From contig JAILHQ010000077.1 in NCBI GenBank assembly GCA_024695725.1, positions 1 through 21,220 of the forward strand: 21,220 nt of DNA, read 5' to 3'. The notes below the pieces were generated by a model that was not told the DNA's origin, did no database searches, and was given only the letters and a program-made list of their open reading frames with translations. The translations under genes and the position numbers were made by a program. Shown piece after piece: positions 667 through 19,152 of the stretch. Numbering within the stretch: the stretch's first letter is position 1; each line of letters starts with the position of its first letter. The stretch comes from Cyanobacteria bacterium RUI128 (GTDB lineage Bacteria > Cyanobacteriota > Vampirovibrionia > Gastranaerophilales > Gastranaerophilaceae).

Positions 667-2127
667 CTAAACCGTTTCAACAACGTCTATATTTGTTTCA
701 CAAGATAATTCTTCATGAGCTATTACGGTTAAATTATTAATGAACTCTGAGAAAATTGCAAATGTCATATGACGAATTTCCATAGGAACGAGAATTATAA
801 CTTCCTTCATTTCGTGTTTTTCCGCAGCTTTTATGATTTTCTTAGCAATTTTTTCTGCAATTTTGCCGTCAACCTTAATAATAGCCTCATCATCCGATTC
901 GGTTAATTTGAACATACTGTCAAGAGTTGTACCAGAAAACTCTATGACTTTAGTTGCTTCGCTTCCAATGAATCTTCTTGAGATATGTTTAGCAAGCGAC
1001 AGTCTGATTCTGTCGAGCAAACCGTCTTTTGATACTTCGTCTGAAAAATCGTTTATTTTTTCAAAAATATAATCAATATCTTTTATCGAAATCTTTTCCC
1101 TTATGAGGTTAATAAGAATGTATTTCAGTTCTGCAAGGGTAATGAAATCAGGAATAATATTATTTATTACAAACGGATTTCTCTTTTCAACAAGTGAAAC
1201 GTATCTGTTTATATCACTGTAATCAAGAAGTTCGGATACATATTTAACTGATATAAACTCAATGGCACGAGCAATATATTCAACTGCACTGTATCCTTCT
1301 GCCCAGAAATCTTCTGCCTGATTGCCATCTATCCACCAGACTTCTTTTCCGGTAATTTCGTCTTTTGCAACGATAGTTCCGGCTGGTTTTCTTGAAAGTT
1401 TTATATCATCTTTAAAGTATGCAATATGTTCAGGAACAGCCACAGACTTATAGACTTCAAGATTATGAACTTTTATACTGAACTCGTACGGTGCGAGTGT
1501 GTCTTCATCCTGAAAAATCATTTTCGGAATCACATATCCGAGTTCGTCAGTCAGTTTCTGTCTTGATTTTACGGTTTCAGACAACAAGTCGTTCTGACTA
1601 TCGGGACTCACAAACTCAAGCAATTCGTCGCTCAGGTTTACCGTAAATTTTTCTTCCCCTATTCTAGAATACATTACTCCCGGTGAAATCTCTTTAACCA
1701 AATCTTGTTTCAAGCTGTCTAATCTTTGCAGTTCGTCAGACATCTGTCTGTTCAGGGTATCTCTTTCAGACCAGTCAACCTTATCAATTTCTGCCTTAAC
1801 ATTTGCAACTCTTTCTTTTTGAGCTCTTATTTTGCCTATAATATCTTTACAAGTTTCGTAAGGAGTCATATTGTTTGATAACATTTTTTCCATCTGAGCC
1901 TTAAAGTTCTTGATGTTAACAACTTTATCAAAAACTTCATTATCGTCAGACATAGGGCGTTCACGCATAAAGATGCAGCTGTATAAATATTCTTCATCAG
2001 TTTCAACTTCGTGCAAAGTGTATAAATCCCACCCTTCAAGGGACATCTCATTCAACAAATCTTCAAGAGCTTGTCTGTCGTCTGTCTGAACTTCTTTGAT
2101 TACATACTCTAAATTTCTGCTAAACAT
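667..2127 (-). CDS. Soluble FlhA/SctV C-terminal-domain protein with DUF4177-like N-terminus
   Basis: 486 residues with no signal peptide and no membrane segment. Residues 1-57 resemble the small DUF4177 fold (LLNEMSLEGWDLYTLHE, then an aromatic strand ending in a basic pair). Residues 75-150 are a charged helical linker. From about 190 to the end the sequence follows the cytosolic domain of the flagellar/type III export gate FlhA/SctV: TDELGYVIPK, YEFSIKVHNLEVYKS, a WWIDGNQAEDFWAEGY block matching the WIxxxxxxxAxxxGY region, KRNPFVINNIIPDFITLAEL, then LINLIREKISIKDIDYIFE. FlhA normally has about 700 residues with eight N-terminal membrane helices, which are absent here. In flagellar export this domain docks chaperone-substrate complexes. 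ATG start with AAGGGAC upstream. It is the last gene of the bamA-skp run. The homology call is firm from motifs; the role without a gate is unknown. Confidence 0.75.
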   Translation of the reverse strand: MFSRNLEYVIKEVQTDDRQALEDLLNEMSLEGWDLYTLHEVETDEEYLYSCIFMRERPMSDDNEVFDKVVNIKNFKAQMEKMLSNNMTPYETCKDIIGKIRAQKERVANVKAEIDKVDWSERDTLNRQMSDELQRLDSLKQDLVKEISPGVMYSRIGEEKFTVNLSDELLEFVSPDSQNDLLSETVKSRQKLTDELGYVIPKMIFQDEDTLAPYEFSIKVHNLEVYKSVAVPEHIAYFKDDIKLSRKPAGTIVAKDEITGKEVWWIDGNQAEDFWAEGYSAVEYIARAIEFISVKYVSELLDYSDINRYVSLVEKRNPFVINNIIPDFITLAELKYILINLIREKISIKDIDYIFEKINDFSDEVSKDGLLDRIRLSLAKHISRRFIGSEATKVIEFSGTTLDSMFKLTESDDEAIIKVDGKIAEKIAKKIIKAAEKHEMKEVIILVPMEIRHMTFAIFSEFINNLTVIAHEELSCETNIDVVETV

Positions 2128-2221
2128 AATGTCCCTTTCTGTGGCTCATAAATAAATTAAATAGTATCTTATAACTTGCAATTTTTCAAGAGGAAACATT
2201 TCATTATTTACATAAAAGGAT

Positions 2222-2249
2222 AAATTATTTACCCTAAATATATCCCCTA
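2222..2249 (-). repeat. GGGGTAAATA-type element, degenerate double copy after skp
   Basis: Read on the minus strand, the skp stop TAG is followed by GGGATATATTTAGGG and then TAAATAATTTA. This is a near copy of the stretch following the bamA stop, with the same TAGGGG opening and the same GTAAATAATTTA ending. An in-frame second stop (TAA) falls inside the element. Confidence 0.55.
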
Positions 2250-2699
2250 TAATTTAGCACCTTTAAGTCTGTCGATAAGAGTTTTGGTAATATCAACACC
2301 ACCGCAGAATACAGCCTTATCACTGATAACAGCATCAAGTTTTTGCTCTACCATAATACCTTTAGCAACTTCTCTTATCTTAGTAAAAATCGCCTGTTCT
2401 GTTTTAGCCTGTTCTCTCAGGTATTCGGTTTGTTTTGCTTTAAGTTCTGCAGTAACCTTATCCTGGAAATTTTGTTTTTGTACCGGTGACTGAATTGCTT
2501 CGTATTCCTTTTCCTTATCAAACATATATTGTTTGATAGCCAAAGCTTTTGAGTCTAACTGTTTTTTTGCATTAAGTGCAAAAGAACAATTTTCAATAAC
2601 TTCTTCGTAATCAACATATCCTATACCACCTGCAAACGAAACACCTGTACACATTATTGTTAATAAAGCCGTTAAAATAGCAACTTTGATTTTTTTCAT
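2247..2699 (-). CDS. skp: Periplasmic chaperone of the Skp/OmpH family
   Basis: 150 residues. Residues 1-23 form a signal peptide (lysines, hydrophobic core TALLTIMCTGVS, cleavage near SFA-GG). The mature protein opens with GIGYVDYEEVIENCSFAL, matching the conserved OmpH start (IGYVDxxxVhxxxP). A long charged helix of about residues 45-115 forms the tentacle-like coiled coil, and the C-terminus (KLDAVISDKAVFCGGVDITK) is the usual strand returning to the trimer core. Skp/OmpH proteins hold unfolded outer-membrane proteins on their way to BamA, and bamA lies directly upstream. The ATG start is supported by AAGGAG at good spacing. The gap to bamA contains repeated GGGGTAAAT motifs and no terminator, so co-transcription is likely. 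The family call is strong. Confidence 0.88.
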   Translation of the reverse strand: MKKIKVAILTALLTIMCTGVSFAGGIGYVDYEEVIENCSFALNAKKQLDSKALAIKQYMFDKEKEYEAIQSPVQKQNFQDKVTAELKAKQTEYLREQAKTEQAIFTKIREVAKGIMVEQKLDAVISDKAVFCGGVDITKTLIDRLKGAKL

Positions 2700-2733: not shown

Positions 2734-2757
2734 ATTTACACCTAATATTTACCCCTA
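2734..2757 (-). repeat. GGGGTAAATA element, two units at the bamA stop
   Basis: On the minus strand the bamA stop TAG runs directly into GGGTAAATATTAGGTGTAAA. The exact 9-mer GGGGTAAAT lies at 2747-2755 and a one-mismatch copy (GGTGTAAAT) at 2734-2742, 13 nt apart. The last G of the TAG stop is the first G of the motif, and the TAA of the first copy is a second in-frame stop. Confidence 0.65.
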
Positions 2758-4677
2758 GTACATCATGTCGCCGACACCGAAGGTGAAGTAACCGTGTTTG
2801 CTTCCGTAAGCACCGCTACGTGTAAGAGGAATACCGTAATCAACAGACAGAGGACCTACACCCGGAATATAGAGTTTCAAACCGATACCTGCCGTAATTG
2901 CTTCCATTGGTCTATCATAAATATAGTCAGATGTATATCCCTTGAACACCTTACCTGCGTCAACAAAGAAGGTTAAACGGAGGTTTTGGAAGAAATTAAC
3001 TTTTAATCTGTCTAAGAATAATACAGGAGTTGCAAGTTCGATTGAACCCATTGCAAAAGCGTCACCTGTACCAACACCGTTAATCTTATAACCTCTCACT
3101 GTATAAGGGCCACCTAAACGGTAAGCCATAACTTCAGGCATATGATCTCCGAAAATCTTTCCGCCTGCTTTTGCGGTAAGTGATAATGATGACTTAGACG
3201 CAACAGGGAAGAATCTCTTCAGCATACCTGTAAGTTTACCGTTAGTTCTGTTAAATTCATCCAGACAAAATGCCTGATCATATCTGATTGATGCCAATAC
3301 ACCGTTTCTCGGGTTAAGAGAAGAATCTCTTGTATCGTATCTTAAGCCCGGGCTGAGTGTTAAGAACAAACCGCCTTCTAATTGTTTAGCACGTTCGGAA
3401 ATAGGAACCCCTTTTCCTCTAAACATATTTTTAATTCTTTTTTCATCCCCTTCTTTCAGGTGAATATTTTCAGCCCCGAGAGATAATGATGAAACGAGGT
3501 TAGGATTTGTCTTCATTTGGTGAGACAAAGTAGCCTCAAAACCAATTCTGTTTTCAACTGCCAACGGTACGTTATAACTACCAAAATCTCTGAAGAAGAT
3601 CTTACTCATCAGAGAAGTATCAGCATTAAACAAATACGGCTGGAAGAAACTCAGCTCAGCCTGAAAGTTCATGTGGTTCTTAACGGTTGTATCGCTCATG
3701 ATAACACCGGAACCAACCAAACCGCTTAGTGAAACTCTCTGATTCAGACCTCTGAAGTTATTATCACTGATACCCAATGAACCGAAGACACCGGTACTTG
3801 AATCAAGACCACCACCCAGTGAAATAGATGCAGTTCTTTGTTCTGTAATTATTATTGTAATATCATACTTGTCAGGATCGTCAGGACAAGCATCAATACT
3901 TCTGTTAACATCCTTGAAGGCCTGCGTAGAATATAATCTTACCAGGTCTTGTTTGATTTGGTTTTCATTATAAACCATACCCGGTTCTGTCAAAATATTT
4001 CTTGTAATAACATATTCTTTAGTTTTATTATTTCCGGAAATAAGAATCTTGTTGATAGTACCTTCTTTTAAACTGATATTGATAGTTCCGTCAGGGTCGT
4101 CGTATATAGCATCAACCCTTGCCAGAATGTATCCTCTTGATGCATAACATTCATTAATCTTTTCAATAGCCTTGTTTACATCGTCAATATTCTGAGGTTT
4201 GCCTATAAGCGGAGCAACCAACGGCATCAATTCTTCCGTTGATATAACCGTATTTCCGTCAATCATAACATCTCTTACCGGAATATTTTCTTCCAGTAAA
4301 ATCTTCAGGGTAATTGTTCCGTCAGCATTTTCAACCGGAATAGCTTTCATCTTTTCCGTAAAGAAACCCATCTGGTAAATGTTTTTCAAATCTCTCTGAA
4401 TCATGTCTGCATCAAAAGGATCCCCTTTTTTCATCTGCATCTTAGACAACACAGCTGCCGGCTTGATAACATTGGTACCAAGGATTTCTATATCCCGAAT
4501 AGTCTGGGCATTTTTAATAGAAGTGTCAAAATATTCTTCACTGCCTGAATTATCGGACGGAAGCCCAAAATCAGATTGCTGACCATTTATAAATGTCTCA
4601 GCATCAGCTCCTCCGGCCAGTGTGAAAAACGCGCACAAAAATATTAAACTTTTTCTCAATATATCAACTGAGTTCAA
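2755..4677 (-). CDS. bamA: Outer-membrane protein assembly factor BamA (Omp85) with three POTRA domains
   Basis: 640 residues. Signal peptide about 1-26 (SLIFLCAFFTLAGGADA). After a short Ser/Asp-rich spacer come three POTRA repeats at about 60-132, 133-210 and 211-285; each has the alpha-beta pattern with a G(N/T) turn (IEILGTNVI, VMIDGNTVI, ILISGNNKT). The rest is a 16-strand-type barrel with repeated aromatic and Gly-rich strands, the loop-6 motif VRGY near residue 530, and a terminal aromatic residue (GDMMY). E. coli BamA has five POTRAs; cyanobacterial Omp85 proteins typically have three. BamA inserts beta-barrel proteins in the outer membrane and is essential. The start is TTG, chosen because GGGGAAGAGAG lies 7 nt upstream and the signal peptide then has a basic n-region. 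A TATAAT occurs about 25 nt before the start. skp follows. Confidence 0.92.
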   Translation of the reverse strand: MNSVDILRKSLIFLCAFFTLAGGADAETFINGQQSDFGLPSDNSGSEEYFDTSIKNAQTIRDIEILGTNVIKPAAVLSKMQMKKGDPFDADMIQRDLKNIYQMGFFTEKMKAIPVENADGTITLKILLEENIPVRDVMIDGNTVISTEELMPLVAPLIGKPQNIDDVNKAIEKINECYASRGYILARVDAIYDDPDGTINISLKEGTINKILISGNNKTKEYVITRNILTEPGMVYNENQIKQDLVRLYSTQAFKDVNRSIDACPDDPDKYDITIIITEQRTASISLGGGLDSSTGVFGSLGISDNNFRGLNQRVSLSGLVGSGVIMSDTTVKNHMNFQAELSFFQPYLFNADTSLMSKIFFRDFGSYNVPLAVENRIGFEATLSHQMKTNPNLVSSLSLGAENIHLKEGDEKRIKNMFRGKGVPISERAKQLEGGLFLTLSPGLRYDTRDSSLNPRNGVLASIRYDQAFCLDEFNRTNGKLTGMLKRFFPVASKSSLSLTAKAGGKIFGDHMPEVMAYRLGGPYTVRGYKINGVGTGDAFAMGSIELATPVLFLDRLKVNFFQNLRLTFFVDAGKVFKGYTSDYIYDRPMEAITAGIGLKLYIPGVGPLSVDYGIPLTRSGAYGSKHGYFTFGVGDMMY

Positions 4678-9985: not shown

Positions 9986-10621
9986 ATGAAAGTAATAACA
10001 CTAAACGGCATCAAAACTGGTGCAAAGAGAATTTCAAACTCAATAAGAGAAGCCGAAAAAGATCTTAGAGCAAATGTTCGCAACATACGCGAAGAAATAC
10101 AGGAATGGAGAGAAGTAGGTAAAGTTCACAAAGCAGGGGTTACCGATGACACCGTCTTGGAACAACTGGGACCTGCAACAAAAGGGCTTGAAGACTATGC
10201 GAAAGCTAATAATATTAATATTACTTTCCACACACCACAAAAACCTGCTGAAGTTGGATCAAATGATTTTGAAAAACCGCTGTCAATAACTGTATATAAA
10301 GACGGATTTTTAAATTCGTATATGACTGCACGCACAATCGATGGTGATGTTAGTAAGGTTACACAGGCAAAAGTTGAGCTTAATCAACCTAACGGTAAAA
10401 AAGTTACAGCAAATGTTGAAGACAGTTTCTTAGGCCGAGTATATAGAACCGTATCGGAAATGGCAGGTGAAATAAACACCAAACGACAAAAAAATGCAGA
10501 AGGTCGTTTCTGTAATATAGTAAATGATGAATTGAGAGAAGAAATCAGAGCTTCACACGAACAAATAAGAGAAGGCATAAAGGATTTCTTCACTTCATTC
10601 GTCCCGAAGAAAAAATCATAA
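9986..10621 (+). CDS. Unknown cytoplasmic protein with charged helical ends
   Basis: 211 residues of no family I recognise. The N-terminal 45 residues are strongly helical and basic/acidic (AEKDLRANVRNIREEIQEWR). The middle (about 50-150) looks like an alpha-beta domain with strands INITFHT, LSITVYKDGF and AKVELNQPNGKKVTANVED. The end is another amphipathic helix (ELREEIRASHEQIREGIKDFF) and a basic tip (PKKKS). There is no signal peptide or membrane segment. The ATG is preceded by TTGGGGAGAATAAG, a good Shine-Dalgarno. It stands alone on the plus strand, with a promoter candidate before it and a strong terminator after it shared with the convergent neighbour. The coding call is strong; the function is unknown. 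Confidence 0.85.
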   Translation: MKVITLNGIKTGAKRISNSIREAEKDLRANVRNIREEIQEWREVGKVHKAGVTDDTVLEQLGPATKGLEDYAKANNINITFHTPQKPAEVGSNDFEKPLSITVYKDGFLNSYMTARTIDGDVSKVTQAKVELNQPNGKKVTANVEDSFLGRVYRTVSEMAGEINTKRQKNAEGRFCNIVNDELREEIRASHEQIREGIKDFFTSFVPKKKS

Positions 10622-10667: not shown

Positions 10668-12026
10668 TTAAGAATTTTTCTGTTCGTTAAATTCTCTTAC
10701 CCCGAGAACCCAGTTTTCTGTTTGCTGCATATTTTTCTCAGCAATTTCAGTCGGGATACCTGCGTGATGGATAGTCGGAATCAATTTTGCAGCAGGGCAG
10801 ATTATTGGTTCCGGATTATCATCATCTGTATCATTACAGATGAAGTATAATTCACCATTTTTATCAGTTTGTGCATCAATAATTGTTATTTCGTGGCCGC
10901 CGACAATATGTTTGTTTTCATCTGTCATTGTATAGCCGATAATAATATTTTTACCTGAATTCAAGGTTTCAAGAAGTTGATCTTTTACAGTATTATAATC
11001 AGCCTCATAACCTACGACATTTTGATTATCATCAACCTTCTGATATGTAACGGATGTGATATTTTTATCTTCTACTACTGATTCAAGGAAGGTTTTTTCA
11101 AAATCAATAAGTCCTCTGTCATCATTTGAGAATTTGCCGCCGCGTCTGTCTTTTAACGTATTATATGATTGCTGAGAGCCGATATTCATAAATGTTGACT
11201 GCATCAAGACATCGATAGGTGAACGTTCCAGATTATCCTGATGTCTTTCCTGAATTTGTTCTCTGATATAAGCATTCTCATCCGGCGCCAAGGTGATTTT
11301 TGCTGTTTTGAAATCTTTTGCTTCGTATGGAATTTCAAAAGCATTCAATAACCAGATAGCATCTAAAGTCTTGTCTGATAAACTGTCAAGTTTTATCTCT
11401 TTCTGAACTGATTTATTTGGAGAAGACAAGCCTTCAGCGAATCTTGCAAACTCAGCAGGATTTCTTGAAGCCAGATTAAATTCTTCACTTGCAGCAACAC
11501 AGCAGCCCGAGAATAAATCTGTTATCTCATAATCAGCCATTTTTCTGTCTATAAGGTTTTTAGAGCCATTTGTTAACTTATCTATAACACCCGGTTTATA
11601 CTCATCAGGAACATCGCCAAATCTTTGAGTTATAATGTGAGGATTTGCGATTGTTGCGATTATGTGCTTCAGCAAAATATCAGCATCCATACCTTCTGCT
11701 CTCGGAGTTGTTGCTAATTTGTACAAATTTTCTAACGTTGTAGATTTGTCGTTAGAGTCATTTTTCAGCAAACTACCCGTTTTCAAAAGGGTTTCAAGCT
11801 GTTTCCGGCCAACTTTGTCAAGACGTTTTGTTAAGTATTTGTATTCTGCCTTCTCTTCTTTCGTTGACAAAGATGTTCTGAAACTTACTTCAGGTGCTGA
11901 ACCCTTAAAGCTTGGTGCCGAAGCGTATGAGGTATTCTTAACAGAAGCCTTTTGACTGTCCGCATTTGAACGAACAGAGGCAATTCCATAATTAGGTATA
12001 ATACTGTTAGAATACACACTTAACAT
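10668..12026 (-). CDS. Putative papain-like cysteine peptidase with FKG-containing N-terminus
   Basis: 452 residues, no recognised family by full sequence. The N-terminal 50 residues are Ser/Ala/Asn-rich and low in structure, with SFKG at 39-42. Residues 55-170 are helical. Then comes FSGCCVAASEEF, which parallels the papain active-site helix (CWAFS) with Cys176 as candidate nucleophile. Much later KNIIIGYTM, GGHEITIIDA (His378) and GELYFICNDT (Asn398) follow the order and spacing logic of C1/C39 peptidase His and Asn strands. The peptidase role is inference from these three blocks. There is no signal peptide. The ATG has no clear Shine-Dalgarno; TTTAAT lies a few nt upstream. It is monocistronic with the bidirectional terminator. 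Its upstream region shares a 20-nt motif with the 18292 gene. Confidence 0.8.
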   Translation of the reverse strand: MLSVYSNSIIPNYGIASVRSNADSQKASVKNTSYASAPSFKGSAPEVSFRTSLSTKEEKAEYKYLTKRLDKVGRKQLETLLKTGSLLKNDSNDKSTTLENLYKLATTPRAEGMDADILLKHIIATIANPHIITQRFGDVPDEYKPGVIDKLTNGSKNLIDRKMADYEITDLFSGCCVAASEEFNLASRNPAEFARFAEGLSSPNKSVQKEIKLDSLSDKTLDAIWLLNAFEIPYEAKDFKTAKITLAPDENAYIREQIQERHQDNLERSPIDVLMQSTFMNIGSQQSYNTLKDRRGGKFSNDDRGLIDFEKTFLESVVEDKNITSVTYQKVDDNQNVVGYEADYNTVKDQLLETLNSGKNIIIGYTMTDENKHIVGGHEITIIDAQTDKNGELYFICNDTDDDNPEPIICPAAKLIPTIHHAGIPTEIAEKNMQQTENWVLGVREFNEQKNS

Positions 12027-14576: not shown

Positions 14577-17500
14577 TTATCCGGCATTATCTTCAGCCTG
14601 TGCTGCAGCCTCATTCTTTGCCTGCTCTTCAGCCTCACGTTTAGCCTGTTCTTCGGCCTCTCTCTCAGCCTCAAGTGCGGCCTGTTCTGCAGCAATAGCA
14701 TCCTTGAACTGCTGCATGTATTCCGGATCAAGATAGTTCTGTTCGTCGACAAGCTTATAGAAGTTTTCAAGATTAAATCTTTCAGCCTCATAAGTAAGTC
14801 TGTACACGATAATTGGAATATCTGTTTTCTTGCTTTCGATTTTAACTGCAATATTCAGCATTAAAATATACGTTAAGATCATCAGCAAGCGGTCTTTTAT
14901 ACGCTGACGTTTCATACTGTTTGACAAGGTCATAATGAGTTCATAAGCATCCTCATACATTTCTTTGTCTTTAAGTAAGGTAATTTTGAACCAGTTAGTC
15001 CACAATACCAAATCGTTCATACCTGAAAGCTGAGCGGTTTTATAAACGTCTTCATATATTGTTTCACATTTTTTCCAGGATACCTGATTTTCAACATTGA
15101 TTTTCTGGTAAGAATATCCTATCAACAAATCACAAAGCAGTGAGAATAACATCAACTTGCTGTTCTGAACCGCAAGTTTTGCCTTGTAAATATTTTGGGC
15201 AAACTCATTATACCCTGATGAGAAGTTTTTGAAGGCCTGTATGAGTTCTGATATGAAGTTTGAAATAACGTCGTTTGAAATACCTGCATTATTATCAAAT
15301 TCTTCATTGTGATAAAGCTTTTTAAGCAGTAACAGGAACGCTTCTGACAGAATTGTTCCGCCAACTTCTTTAACCTTTTCAAAGAATTCTTCAAGTGAAT
15401 CATCTGCAATAATAATTCTTGCGAGTGCCGAATATACAAGAATATCCATTACGTACGACATAAACTGCGATTTATCGACACCGCTCCCGCTCAATTTTTC
15501 CGTAAATTCTGGAGTCAGAGTGCTCAAAATCTTGTCACAAACCGCGATACAGTGATCGTACTGTGCCAGATTAAACTCTATTTTCGCCTGAATACAAGAA
15601 TATATTACAAACTGAGGTGTATAATCTTCACCCTCAATAATGAGTTTAGGGTTAAGAATTCTTGTCAGAATATTCTGGATACACTGCTGAGCAAGAACGA
15701 AATCTCCGCCGTTCATTGCCGAGTCAAGTACAAGGTGAGAAACATTTACGATAGTTTCATCATCTTTATTTGCGGTAGCATTAGCCAAAATAGCTTTAGA
15801 AATGCCATATACCTTAGTTGACGGATATCTGTTGAGGTGATTAACAAGTATTGAATAAAGTTCGTTCTTGTTGTCAATTGCTTCGCCCTCTTTGATTTTC
15901 AGCTCGTCAATCAGTGCAAAATAAACCTTTGCACAATTCAGGTATGAATTGAAGTCCCCAAAGTGTAAACAATTTATTGCCAAATCGTGTATCCTTGCAA
16001 GCTTTTCTACATCTTGCCCCATAATGTTATAGAGTTCATAACTTGTATAACCTAATATGGTCATGATATTTGTTGCCAAAGTTTGTTTTACATCAAGCGG
16101 AACAGCCTTCAAAAAGGCAGGATAGAAGATTCTGTAATTTTCTATCGTGAGAATTTCATCATGGTAATTTACCAAAGACTTATTGATTACGTTCTGAATA
16201 GCCTCTTCGAGATTTTCGGCATCCGGCATCAGTTTTTGAATACGTGCGACATTCGCACTGCCGCCGAGAAGCATTGTATATGCAACAACAAGTCCCTCAT
16301 TTTCAGGAAGTGAAGTAAATCTTCTTGTGAACAATTCCTGAACCGTACCAGGGAACACGATAGTTTTTTCTGCATTTATCATGAGTTTGTTTTCAAAAGT
16401 GATAAATACGTTTGTATCCTTAAGATACTGAAATTCATTCTTAAAGTATATCAGGCTGCCTGCACAACGTTCTTCCAGCTTGGATATATAGAACGATTCT
16501 TTGACCTCGCTGATATCATCAGGTATTGATGCAAGAAATTCCGCATAATCACCCTTGGTAACATTAATTTCTTTATAGAAAGGTGAGTGCAAAAGTTTTG
16601 GAATGCTTTTGTAAACCGAATATTCTGAACGAACAGTTACAGCAAAAGATAACGATAAATCACCTACATTTACCAGTGAAGATATGTAGTCATTAAGGAT
16701 TCTGAGAGAGGTTTCATCAATCAGGTCAAGGTTTTCTATGAATATAACCGCATTCTTCTGTTTTGATAAAAATTCTCTAAACGCATTGACATAATTAACA
16801 AATGCAGTATCCGGATCAGTCTCTGACGGTTTGTTATTCAATAGGTTTGAAAACATATTATTTGTATCAAACTGACCAATACCCGCAGATATCTTTTGTG
16901 CTGCATTTTCGTGATTTAAATCTATGTTAAGTATGTTCGCAAGCAAATCTCTGAAGAACGTGTACGGCTGATATTTAAAGTTCTCTTTACATACAACATG
17001 CCATACATTCTGATATTTTGTTTTCAGGAAATTCAGAATATCAGCGGTAGGCAAATCTCTTCGTTCTGTTGTTTTAAGCGCAACAAACGCATTTGAATTG
17101 AACAGTTCATTGAGAACATTGAAGATATTATGCGCAGGAACCGATAAGAACTGACCTTCAGTCGAAATATCGATAGCCTTGTTACCGTACAATATTTCAT
17201 GAAGTTTGTCATCATCATCATAAATTTTAAGTTTCGGTAAATCTCTCGGGCCTTTTAAAATACTCTTGTCAGATACCTGTTCTTCCTCAACAATAGGAAT
17301 AATCTGATCTTCCAGCGGGAATTCGTAGAACATCAAAAGTTCATCACCAACCTGTGAGGAGTAAATCATTTCTAAAGTGTATTCACGAGAAATAATGTTG
17401 TTAATATATTGGTCGGTAATTAACTGAAGCCCGTCAGTATATTTTTCTTCAGTGTTATCCTTGATGAGCTTAATGTTAAGACCTGTATTAAATTCGTTGT

Positions 17501-18083
17501 TATCTGTTTCAAAAGTCTTTTTCAGAATTGTCATTTTACAGTGCAATCTGACATTTTTACCTTTTTTCAGTTTATGGCTGATACCGCCGATTTTATTTAA
17601 AAGCTCGATAGCTGATTTAACAGCCTTTTTAACAGAACTTGTAAAAGAAAACTCTTTGTAATACTTGATTACATAAGTTTCACCAAAAGCCTGCGCACGG
17701 TTATCCTGACTCTTTGCATATCCGAAAAGTGCCTGTTTAAGTTTCTTTTTGAACTTGTTGAAAATTTGTTTATTTTTAAGTGCCGGTCTTAAATCTTCGA
17801 GGTTAGGGAAAGTAATCGCCAAACAAGCGTATTCTTCTGTTTCAGCCTCATTCATAATGACACTTTTTGCAGTAGAAAATCCGCATTTACGGCACTTGCC
17901 CGAATTTGGTCCCGGGGTACCGCATTGATGACACTTAACAATTATTACGTTACCGCACTCTTCACAAACGGTTCCGCGATTAAACTTATGGCAAACAGGG
18001 CATTCTAACTGCAGGACCTTATTACAATAAGGGCACTTTTTATCGCTATCTTTTACCTCGTTACCGCACTTTGGACATTCCAT
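14577..18083 (-). CDS. Triple zinc-ribbon, degenerate cyclase/STAND-ATPase protein with helical repeats
   Basis: 1168 residues from the ATG at 18083. Residues 1-69 have 12 Cys in six CxxC pairs (3/6, 17/20, 28/31, 40/43, 51/54, 64/67): three zinc ribbons. About 80-255 follows a class III cyclase outline (LAITFPNLEDLRPA, late block TDGLQLITDQYINNIIS ending in LMFYEF) without recognisable metal-binding Asp. About 300-520 resembles the AAA/STAND ATPase usually fused to such cyclases: Walker B-like NAVIFIENLDLIDETSLRIL, but at the P-loop position (FVALKTTERRDLPTADI) there is no GKS/T. The remainder is helical repeat (TPR-like), ending in an AEEQAKREAEEQAK tail. I infer a scaffold or sensor rather than an enzyme. 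TATAAT 6 nt before the ATG decides the start over a TTG at 18107. glgA follows. Confidence 0.85.
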   Translation of the reverse strand: MECPKCGNEVKDSDKKCPYCNKVLQLECPVCHKFNRGTVCEECGNVIIVKCHQCGTPGPNSGKCRKCGFSTAKSVIMNEAETEEYACLAITFPNLEDLRPALKNKQIFNKFKKKLKQALFGYAKSQDNRAQAFGETYVIKYYKEFSFTSSVKKAVKSAIELLNKIGGISHKLKKGKNVRLHCKMTILKKTFETDNNEFNTGLNIKLIKDNTEEKYTDGLQLITDQYINNIISREYTLEMIYSSQVGDELLMFYEFPLEDQIIPIVEEEQVSDKSILKGPRDLPKLKIYDDDDKLHEILYGNKAIDISTEGQFLSVPAHNIFNVLNELFNSNAFVALKTTERRDLPTADILNFLKTKYQNVWHVVCKENFKYQPYTFFRDLLANILNIDLNHENAAQKISAGIGQFDTNNMFSNLLNNKPSETDPDTAFVNYVNAFREFLSKQKNAVIFIENLDLIDETSLRILNDYISSLVNVGDLSLSFAVTVRSEYSVYKSIPKLLHSPFYKEINVTKGDYAEFLASIPDDISEVKESFYISKLEERCAGSLIYFKNEFQYLKDTNVFITFENKLMINAEKTIVFPGTVQELFTRRFTSLPENEGLVVAYTMLLGGSANVARIQKLMPDAENLEEAIQNVINKSLVNYHDEILTIENYRIFYPAFLKAVPLDVKQTLATNIMTILGYTSYELYNIMGQDVEKLARIHDLAINCLHFGDFNSYLNCAKVYFALIDELKIKEGEAIDNKNELYSILVNHLNRYPSTKVYGISKAILANATANKDDETIVNVSHLVLDSAMNGGDFVLAQQCIQNILTRILNPKLIIEGEDYTPQFVIYSCIQAKIEFNLAQYDHCIAVCDKILSTLTPEFTEKLSGSGVDKSQFMSYVMDILVYSALARIIIADDSLEEFFEKVKEVGGTILSEAFLLLLKKLYHNEEFDNNAGISNDVISNFISELIQAFKNFSSGYNEFAQNIYKAKLAVQNSKLMLFSLLCDLLIGYSYQKINVENQVSWKKCETIYEDVYKTAQLSGMNDLVLWTNWFKITLLKDKEMYEDAYELIMTLSNSMKRQRIKDRLLMILTYILMLNIAVKIESKKTDIPIIVYRLTYEAERFNLENFYKLVDEQNYLDPEYMQQFKDAIAAEQAALEAEREAEEQAKREAEEQAKNEAAAQAEDNAG

Positions 18084-18089
18084 AATTTT

Positions 18090-18117
18090 ATTATAGCACG
18101 AGGGCAATATTAGACAA
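18090..18117 (-). promoter_or_regulatory. Sigma-70 promoter giving a leaderless mRNA for the 18083 gene
   Basis: The minus strand has TTGTCT (18112-18117), a 16-nt spacer, TATAAT (18090-18095), then AAAATT and ATG. Transcription should begin at or next to the A of ATG. This is the best-supported case of the leaderless pattern in the window. Confidence 0.65.
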
Positions 18118-18291: not shown

Positions 18292-19152
18292 TTATTCCTC
18301 CTCCGGTTTCAATTCGGTTTGTGACTCAAGATTCTGCAATTGTATCATTGCCTCAAGTCTTGTTCTTTCTTCTTCAAAACGAACATCTTCAGCCATTAAG
18401 TCAACCATAATTTCAGCTTTTTCTTCTGCTGATGCAGATTCATTGTATTTTTTTAAAAGAGCATTTGTTCTAGCCTGAAATGCAGCTTGCATATTACTTA
18501 GTATATCTCTGGCTCTTGCAATTGATTTTTCAAATCTTGAATGAGTTCTTAAAAGATTTGCTGTTTCTAATGTTTCAGGAGTATCAAATTCCTCAGCATC
18601 ATTTGCTGCAGCTTCTGAAACTTCTTGAGCTCTGCCTGATTTTATTGCATCAGAGATATATTTTACAGCACCCGGGGTGCTTTCAGCCATAATATTAACT
18701 AATTCAGCATCAAATCCTGCTTCTGTTAATGACTCAACAGATTCACTTTGAGCAGAAAGCATAGGTTTTTTATTTTCTTCTCTTAATTTATCGATATCAA
18801 CACCATCTTCAGCTGATAATAATGACATCATATTTTCTAAAGATATTTCATCTTCAGAGAAGAACGGTTCTTTTTCTGTACCTTTATTTTCAACACCGGC
18901 AGATTTACCAAATTCAGCACCAAGTAAAACTGCCAATTCTAATTTCATTTCTGATTCCAAACCATCAATATTAACCTGTTCATTAGCATTTGCAGGTTTA
19001 GCATTCTCAGCTTCAGCTTTTACCTTAATTGCATCCCAACCTGAAACATAAGTGTTTAATTCTGTTTTTGTATCGATTTTTGACTTATCATTTTGCATAC
19101 TTGCAGCAGTTGTACCTAAGTTGCCAATCAATTTTCCGAAGTCGATACCCAT
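18292..19152 (-). CDS. Unknown acidic, Ala/Glu-rich helical protein
   Basis: 286 residues, not recognised. It begins MGIDFGKLIGNLGTTAA without a true signal peptide. The middle is acidic and probably mostly disordered or helical (FFSEDEISLENMMSLLSAED). The last 90 residues form a strong charged coiled coil (FEKSIARARDILSNMQAAFQ, then EDVRFEEERTRLEAMIQ), ending LKPEEE. There are no cysteines. ACAGGAGAATATATA before the ATG is a good Shine-Dalgarno. It is monocistronic, with a strong terminator 120 nt beyond the stop. Its upstream region shares a 20-nt motif with the 12026 gene and is divergent from the ThiE-like gene. The coding call is strong from length, ribosome site and terminator; the function is unknown. 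Confidence 0.82.
   Translation of the reverse strand: MGIDFGKLIGNLGTTAASMQNDKSKIDTKTELNTYVSGWDAIKVKAEAENAKPANANEQVNIDGLESEMKLELAVLLGAEFGKSAGVENKGTEKEPFFSEDEISLENMMSLLSAEDGVDIDKLREENKKPMLSAQSESVESLTEAGFDAELVNIMAESTPGAVKYISDAIKSGRAQEVSEAAANDAEEFDTPETLETANLLRTHSRFEKSIARARDILSNMQAAFQARTNALLKKYNESASAEEKAEIMVDLMAEDVRFEEERTRLEAMIQLQNLESQTELKPEEE

What the first reader, a model, noticed from the sequence alone, without database searches (positions are those of the whole stretch)
667..2127. Export-gate domain without the gate: a soluble FlhA/SctV C-domain fused to a DUF4177-like module
Seen: no membrane helices, a clear FlhA C-domain pattern from about residue 190 on, and a small DUF4177-like module in front. 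Known: this domain of FlhA/SctV forms a ring that receives chaperone-bound export substrates, and it is normally the tail of an eight-helix membrane protein. Here it stands alone at the end of a bamA-skp run. It could be a relic of flagellar loss, a decoy or regulator of a type III system elsewhere, or an adaptor in an undescribed secretion or envelope process.
Basis: partly seen in the sequence, partly recalled or inferred. Interest (0 to 1): 0.72.

Follow-up and report, generated by a model that had tools for sequence, protein, structure and literature searches.

The report
Soluble paralogue of type III gate
Gut-dwelling relatives of cyanobacteria carry a membrane-free copy of the cargo-docking half of a protein-export gate, fused to a small extra module, alongside a second export machine that looks like a flagellum without its filament.

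Summary

It is not a flagellar relic. A strong match is in 116 of 117 sampled genomes of the order Gastranaerophilales, including all 73 without flagellin, and the window copy differs from its nearest relative mostly at third codon positions. It co-occurs with a second, flagellum-like type III core: FlhA2 by score in at least 110 of 117, FliP of some kind in 116 of 117. It groups with FlhA2 rather than flagellar FlhA.

Linker, D1 and D3 stay closest to FlhA2; D2, D4, the flagellar chaperone dimple and the GYXLI glycine are changed.

Best reading, inferred: a cytosolic accessory or regulatory gate subunit acting with FlhA2. The window's own genome is not held, and no interaction was tested.

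The parts
667..2127 (-). Gene for the soluble FHIPEP C-domain protein, 486 aa
   Evidence: ORF; Pfam FHIPEP; fold; codon-position differences
1960..2112 (-). N-terminal beta-alpha-beta-beta module (residues 6-56), DUF4177-like below cut-off
   Evidence: AlphaFold2 of residues 1-62, mean pLDDT 86.9; PF13783 weak in 14 of 14
1687..1902 (-). Helical stretch with a hairpin (residues 76-147) between the N-module and the gate domain
   Evidence: AlphaFold2 model, helices 76-83, 89-116, 119-147; pLDDT below 50 at 59-85
1648..1686 (-). Linker (residues 148-160), counterpart of FlhA_L, with positions shared with FlhA2
   Evidence: P351 and M354 (E. coli numbering) shared with FlhA2, not with flagellar FlhA; helix 149-156
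670..1656 (-). FlhA/SctV cytosolic domain (residues 158-486), D1-D4
2132..2138 (-). Ribosome-binding-site-like AAAGGGA upstream of the ATG
   Evidence: read directly from the sequence
2161..2189 (-). Promoter-like TTGAAA-17-TACTAT between skp and the gene
   Evidence: consensus scan; the region holds 8 such sites against 8.7 in shuffles, so weak
2247..2699 (-). skp/OmpH-like gene, upstream neighbour (context)
   Evidence: PF03938; linkage clade-limited
2755..4677 (-). bamA (Omp85) gene (context)
   Evidence: PF01103 and POTRA

Best explanation
It is a cytosolic, membrane-free paralogue of the docking domain of FlhA2, the export-gate subunit of a second type III apparatus, present also without flagellin, found throughout Gastranaerophilales. 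The soluble proteins form one clade, so one origin by duplication near the FlhA2 lineage is the simplest history. The copy has no membrane half, has a beta-alpha-beta-beta module and a helical hairpin instead, and kept the linker, D1 and D3 (by published work on FlhA, the parts that make ring contacts) closest to FlhA2, while the cargo face (D2, D4, chaperone dimple, GYXLI switch) was remodelled. Most likely it works in trans as an accessory gate subunit: it binds the FlhA2 ring, or forms a matching ring below it, through linker/D1/D3 contacts, and uses its altered D2/D4 face and N-module to admit, hold or block a different set of substrates. Shown: domain identity, solubility, near-universal retention together with the second core, kinship with FlhA2, loss of the canonical chaperone-site residues. 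Inferred: physical contact with FlhA2, ring formation, the regulatory role.
For: Fold and family. Strong match in 116 of 117 genomes of the order; FliP of some kind in 116 of 117; FlhA2-type full-length FHIPEP, typed by score, in at least 110 of 117 by my count, whose list is cut off near 701 bits. Flagellin in 44 of 117; the one genome without the soluble gene, G041, has flagellin, so all 73 flagellin-less genomes keep it. In the 13 nearest genomes: FlhA2 13/13, one of them cut by a contig end, FliP 13/13, FlhB 13/13, Flg_bbr_C rod/hook-type proteins 13/13, FliI-type ATPase C-domain 11/13, flagellin 5/13. Second-core clusters carry FliE, FliF, a divergent FliG-like protein, FliH, FlhA2 and SpoA/FliN, FliO, FliP, FliQ, FliR. 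Trees: soluble one clade 100/100, FlhA2 100/84, flagellar FlhA with E. coli FlhA 100/100; in a wider set soluble (100/98) and FlhA2-type rows share one 100/100 branch apart from flagellar FlhA. At 90% conservation 12 positions are shared by soluble and FlhA2 but not flagellar FlhA, 0 by soluble and flagellar FlhA but not FlhA2. Consensus agreement soluble=FlhA2: linker 0.32, D1 0.42/0.35, D3 0.39, D2 0.15, D4 0.19; the control FlhA2=flagellar has D4 0.40. F459 kept in 0/60 (T 49), T490 in 0/60 (R or K 48), G368 in 3/60 (S 56); roles of these residues from PMC8166844 and PMC9431611 (passages). In one genome, G005, the gene ends an unbroken same-strand run from FliN2-FliO-FliP-FliQ-FliR through tonB-exbB-exbD-recF-bamA-skp, followed by murA. 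In a class member, G154, a different stand-alone FHIPEP C-domain lies directly downstream of FlhA2.
Against: Apart from the G005 run, no operon with a type III gene was seen in the 36 genomes whose surroundings were annotated (31, 5). FlhA2 lies within 30 kb in only 6 genomes (my reading), near what I would expect by chance (about 3 to 4); FliP2 within 11 kb in 6, more than the roughly 1 expected, but 4 of them look like one clade. Three genomes (G018, G030, G109) have the soluble gene but only flagellar FlhA and one more match with PF00771; all three still have two FliP genes, and all are drafts. FliP of the second kind was not found in G041 or G076. Co-retention of two near-universal features cannot prove a shared pathway. 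The sister relation to FlhA2 assumes that the root lies on the flagellar side; no outside outgroup beyond E. coli FlhA was used, and the tool warned of long branches. The soluble clade is more diverged than FlhA2 (mean identity 0.47 against 0.79, on unlike samples of 52 and 17 rows). D2 also differs between the membrane paralogues (0.22), and D4 is no nearer to FlhA2 (0.19) than to flagellar FlhA (0.21). D456 is kept in 58/60, so the dimple is not wholly lost. Ring-linker residues E351 and W354 are absent, as in FlhA2. Domain limits D1-D4 are recalled. No interaction was tested.
Confidence: 0.42

Rival explanations
1. Independent cytosolic ring: the protein self-assembles into its own nonamer and acts as a soluble sorting hub that collects or stores second-system substrates, never touching FlhA2.
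For: Complete D1-D4 fold with linker; the N-module and hairpin could replace the membrane anchor as an oligomerisation aid.
Against: The GYXLI glycine and two of three chaperone-dimple residues used in flagellar docking are changed. No ring was modelled here: no multimer predictor was on hand.
Confidence: 0.22
2. Moonlighting: the gate fold was co-opted for something outside type III export, for example envelope biogenesis, or signalling through the DUF4177-like module.
For: bamA-skp-recF neighbourhood in the window's clade; divergence and remodelled cargo face; almost no type III operon linkage; three draft genomes with the gene but no FlhA2-type match.
Against: Co-retention with the second core across the order; bamA in the fetched stretch of only 4 of 19 further genomes. 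Co-retention cannot separate cause from shared core status.
Confidence: 0.22
3. It serves the ordinary flagellum, as a decoy for flagellar FlhA or its chaperones.
For: FHIPEP homology; sources name some members flagellar biosynthesis protein FlhA.
Against: Present in all 73 sampled genomes without flagellin; groups with FlhA2, not flagellar FlhA; F459/T490 site changed.
Confidence: 0.05
4. Relic: a decaying leftover of a flagellar flhA.
For: Published reading that non-motile members keep only a flagellar gene subset (PMC4040986, passages); more diverged than FlhA2.
Against: Strong match in 116 of 117 genomes, two of them partial and one with a stop; differences by codon position 45/20/228; also present in genomes with flagellin and flagellar FlhA.
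Confidence: 0.02

Closest known systems
FlhA cytosolic domain (FlhA_C), flagellar export gate
   Different: No membrane half; N-module and hairpin instead; GYXLI glycine and chaperone-dimple F459/T490 replaced
SctV cytosolic domains of injectisomes (CdsV, MxiA, InvA, SsaV, EscV)
   Different: Lower sequence score than FlhA (TIGR01399 74.1 bits against TIGR01398 129.9); no membrane half
FlhA2, the full-length FHIPEP of the order's second type III core
   Same: Closest membrane paralogue; 12 positions shared against flagellar FlhA
   Different: About 700 aa with membrane helices; keeps R147, R154, D158, K203 and G368 in 37 of 37, T490 in 32 of 37
FlhX, a soluble copy of the FlhB cytosolic domain (nature recalled; the passages seen in PMC9321776 and PMC10746217 only name it)
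   Same: Precedent for a stand-alone cytosolic half of a type III gate protein
   Different: Copies FlhB, not FlhA
Other stand-alone FHIPEP C-domains of the same class (G154 289 aa; G156 553, 320 and 315 aa; G132 two pieces at contig ends)
   Same: FHIPEP C-domains without the membrane half in genomes with a full-length FlhA2-like protein
   Different: Not strong matches of the soluble-family profile; G156 553 and 315 and the G132 pieces branch with those genomes' own FlhA2, the G156 320-aa one on a long branch beside the soluble clade, the G154 one on a very long branch elsewhere

Membership tests
FHIPEP family (PF00771), C-terminal domain | Profile match over the cut-off and FlhA_C fold | tested here: met
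FHIPEP family, full export-gate membrane protein | N-terminal membrane half (profile 1-320) with helices | tested here: not met
   profile match starts at 321; 0 hydrophobic windows in the window protein; R154, D158, K203 in 0 of 60 soluble rows
FlhA equivalog TIGR01398 | Score over 772.1 bits | tested here: not met
   129.9 bits
SctV equivalog TIGR01399 | Score over 692.25 bits | tested here: not met
   74.1 bits
FlhA flagellar chaperone docking platform | Hydrophobic dimple with D456, F459, T490 (PMC8166844, passages) | tested here: not met
   D456 58/60 kept, F459 0/60, T490 0/60
FlhA flagellar chaperone docking platform | GYXLI switch glycine G368 (PMC9431611, passages) | tested here: not met
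   G in 3 of 60, S in 56 of 60
FlhA/SctV nonameric ring | Ring assembly through linker, D1 and D3 | not testable with these tools
   no multimer prediction on hand; linker and D3 positions shared with FlhA2
DUF4177 (PF13783), N-module | Profile match over 25 bits | tested here: inconclusive
   13.2 bits for the window; weak in 14 of 14, best E 0.0022
Second type III core of Gastranaerophilales | Co-occurrence with FlhA2 and FliP | tested here: met
   soluble 116, FliP of some kind 116, FlhA2 by score at least 110, each of 117; G018, G030 and G109 without an FlhA2-type match; the window's own genome not held
Second type III core of Gastranaerophilales | Encoded in the same operon | tested here: inconclusive
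   same-strand run with FliN2-FliR2 in G005 only; not in the other 35 genomes annotated, some on short contigs

The most novel reading that the evidence does not exclude
The order runs a two-part export gate: a membrane FlhA2 ring plus a dedicated soluble FlhA-type subunit that forms a mixed or stacked ring with it and re-codes cargo choice through a new N-terminal module. It serves a type III machine without flagellin that is not a flagellar remnant but an uncharacterised secretion or envelope-spanning device of common gut bacteria.
Probability: 0.25. Interest if true: 0.8.

Novelty: new variant of a known kind. Interest (0 to 1): 0.62.

Why it matters
Export-gate docking domains are known as tails of a membrane ring. 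Here one stands free of the membrane, is kept across nearly a whole order, and is changed at sites used for flagellar chaperones. It also points to a second type III core, kept with or without flagellin, in nearly all sampled Gastranaerophilales; earlier genome papers read the gene sets of non-motile members as an incomplete flagellum (PMC3787301, PMC4040986, passages). If the machine is real, common animal-gut bacteria have an unstudied export device, and the soluble subunit is a ready handle on how gate rings choose cargo.

Tried and rejected
Relic and flagellum-only readings: rejected by distribution and selection. bamA-skp as a functional link: in the 12 annotated nearest loci bamA lies upstream in 12 and skp in 11 (L013 showed none; L007 was not annotated), but among 19 further genomes bamA lay in the fetched stretch in only 4 (G110, G116, G077, G070); some stretches were short. 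Physical linkage to FlhA2: 6 genomes within 30 kb (G020, G026, G106, G123, G110, G116), near chance by my estimate. To FliP2: 6 within 11 kb (G005, G104, G027, G055, G060, G105; the last four alike), above the roughly 1 expected, but on opposite strands except in G005. These distances and chance figures were worked out by eye from the listings, which are cut off.

Papers: no listed paper dealt with this soluble protein or with a second type III core in this group. Only open-licence PMC text is covered and several lists were capped (20 of 47, 10 of 12, 8 of 27, 8 of 55), so this is weak. Titles and abstract starts only, except the passages named.

Rows dropped before counts: of 140 FHIPEP proteins collected, 8 short ones were left out (L007, L031, L055's 470-aa piece, L109-L113) and E. 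coli was used at its annotated length, giving 60 soluble, 37 FlhA2, 34 flagellar plus E. coli. The tree used 91 after thinning at 90%, the domain table 45/13/20 after thinning at 85%; one search used 60/37/34. AlphaFold used 94 of 223 listed homologues. Of the 43 weakly matching class genomes, 24 were looked at again, with G041.

Full report

N-module. Residues 1-62 fold alone as beta-alpha-beta-beta, mean pLDDT 86.9. DUF4177 is the only Pfam family hit by all 14 near relatives, but below cut-off (window 13.2 bits against 25; best E 0.0022); six also hit RraB weakly. NCBIfam Sp36 hits 81 of 94 homologues at E up to 0.1. Fold searches gave no assignment.

Where it occurs. Close relatives come from Candidatus Gastranaerophilales and uncultured-bacterium bins. 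No genome is held for the window itself, so what follows rests on relatives. In 117 genomes drawn from the order of G008 (the genome of L008, titled Candidatus Gastranaerophilales), a profile of the soluble family finds a match below 1e-100 in 116; the exception G041 has only a weaker match. Two matches are partial (G032, G028) and one (G039) has a stop. In a 240-genome draw of the class, 186 match, of which by my count 143 are strong and 43 weak (none better than 1e-52); 54 do not match.

The second type III core. The 13 nearest genomes all carry a full-length FHIPEP of about 725 bits besides the soluble gene (G012's is cut by a contig end), and five of them a further ~701 aa FHIPEP of about 870 bits. 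The latter lies next to a FlhB match in all five, and these same five have flagellin. The former, FlhA2, lies in a cluster FliE-FliF-(divergent FliG-like)-FliH-FlhA2, and a second cluster holds SpoA/FliN-FliO-FliP-FliQ-a small exported-looking protein-FliR. FliP is in 13 of 13, FlhB in 13 of 13, Flg_bbr_C rod/hook-type proteins in 13 of 13, a FliI-type ATPase C-domain in 11 of 13. Across the 117 genomes FliP of some kind is in 116 (all but G076) and flagellin in 44. G041's only FliP match lies about 3 kb from its flagellar FlhA, so the second-kind FliP was not found there either. By my count, typed by score, 41 genomes carry the flagellar-type FHIPEP and at least 110 the FlhA2 type; that list is cut off near 701 bits. 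So the soluble gene is in all 73 flagellin-less genomes and follows the second core, not the flagellum. Against this, G018, G030 and G109 have the soluble gene and flagellar FlhA but no FlhA2-type match among their two PF00771 matches; each has two FliP genes, so gaps in the drafts are likely. Co-retention in a near-universal state shows that the gene is core to the order but cannot prove a shared pathway.

Earlier papers. Di Rienzi et al. [quoted passage not shown] Soo et al. [quoted passage not shown] The data here suggest that this subset is largely a separate machine: of the 13 nearest genomes, the five with flagellin have both cores, and FlhA2 is a distinct, conserved clade (mean identity 0.79).

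Ancestry. On 91 C-domains the soluble proteins form one clade (100/100), FlhA2 another (100/84), and flagellar FlhA with E. coli FlhA a third (100/100). With three clades the sister relation depends on the root; with the root on the flagellar side, soluble and FlhA2 are sisters. Two further results favour this: in a 50-row tree with class-wide FlhA2-like proteins, soluble and FlhA2-type rows share one 100/100 branch apart from flagellar FlhA and E. coli, and at 90% conservation 12 positions are shared by soluble and FlhA2 only, 0 by soluble and flagellar FlhA only (19 against 3 at 80%). The tool warned of long branches meeting at the soluble clade. Of 25 genomes (24 of the 43 weak ones plus G041), 17 have both full-length types by score, so FlhA2 is wider than the soluble family.

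What changed. In E. coli FlhA numbering (roles from PMC8166844 and PMC9431611, passages): of the chaperone dimple, D456 is kept in 58/60, but F459 is T in 49/60 and never F, and T490 is R or K in 48/60 and never T; FlhA2 has Y/F 37/37 and T/S 37/37 there. The order's own flagellar FlhA has E at 456 in 34/34, so that column is not strict. G368 of GYXLI is S in 56/60, G in 37/37 FlhA2. By domain, soluble and FlhA2 consensus agree at 0.32 (linker), 0.42/0.35 (D1), 0.39 (D3), but 0.15 (D2) and 0.19 (D4) (domain limits recalled). D2 also differs between the membrane paralogues (0.22), so the clearest special change is D4 (0.40 in that control). The ring-making half is kept closest, the cargo half is rebuilt.

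Mechanism. I commit to an accessory or regulatory gate subunit acting in trans on FlhA2 (0.42). Shown: family, solubility, retention, kinship, altered docking site. Inferred: contact with FlhA2, ring or cap formation, altered cargo choice. Rivals are an independent soluble ring (0.22) and moonlighting (0.22). Flagellar decoy and relic are near excluded.

Context. The bamA-skp pair is upstream in the window's clade, but bamA was not in the fetched stretch in 15 of 19 further genomes. In G005 the same-strand run reaches from FliN2-FliO-FliP-FliQ-FliR over tonB-exbB-exbD-recF-bamA-skp to the soluble gene and murA; no other of the 36 annotated genomes shows that. The gene has a promoter-like TTGAAA-17-TACTAT, but such sites are as common in shuffles.

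Recurrence. Other class members have different stand-alone FHIPEP C-domains: G154 encodes a 289-aa one directly downstream of FlhA2 in the FliF-FliH-FlhA2 cluster; G156 has three, one of 553 aa with a hydrophobic N-terminus; G132 has two pieces at contig ends. Two of the G156 proteins and the G132 pieces branch with those genomes' own FlhA2. So freeing of the gate domain may have happened more than once in this class.

Noticed in passing
L288:8998-9867 (G154): A 289-aa stand-alone FHIPEP C-domain ending before D4, directly downstream of FlhA2 in the same cluster.
   Followed up: partly
L289:5295-6956, L290:289-1236, L291:151-1113 (G156): Three further stand-alone FHIPEP C-domain proteins in one genome, one with a hydrophobic N-terminus.
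   Followed up: partly
L104:2705-15630 (G005): Same-strand run FliN2-FliO-FliP-FliQ-FliR, tonB-exbB-exbD-exbD, recF-bamA-skp, soluble gene.
   Followed up: partly
L105:8566-8919 and counterparts in L101, L103, L104, L106: A small exported-looking protein between FliQ and FliR of the second core, weakly like the T2SS-T3SS pilus N-domain (E 0.019 for L105).
   Followed up: no
L105:8949-9440: FliQ of the second core is 163 aa, about 90 residues longer than its Bac_export_3 match, with a tail shared by the other loci.
   Followed up: no
L046:4985-6070: FliG-like protein of the second core is barely recognisable (FliG_M E 0.0047).
   Followed up: no
window 14577-18107: 1176-aa protein with N-terminal zinc ribbons and a weak AAA match, all below cut-off; function unclear.
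   Followed up: no
window 9986-10621, 10668-12026, 18292-19152: Three ORFs (211, 452, 286 aa) without a Pfam match over the cut-off.
   Followed up: no
G012:C50:7495-7905, G012:C43:7482-7865, G012:C40:11937-12344: Flagellin-N matches inside open frames of about 1400 aa, much longer than ordinary flagellin.
   Followed up: no
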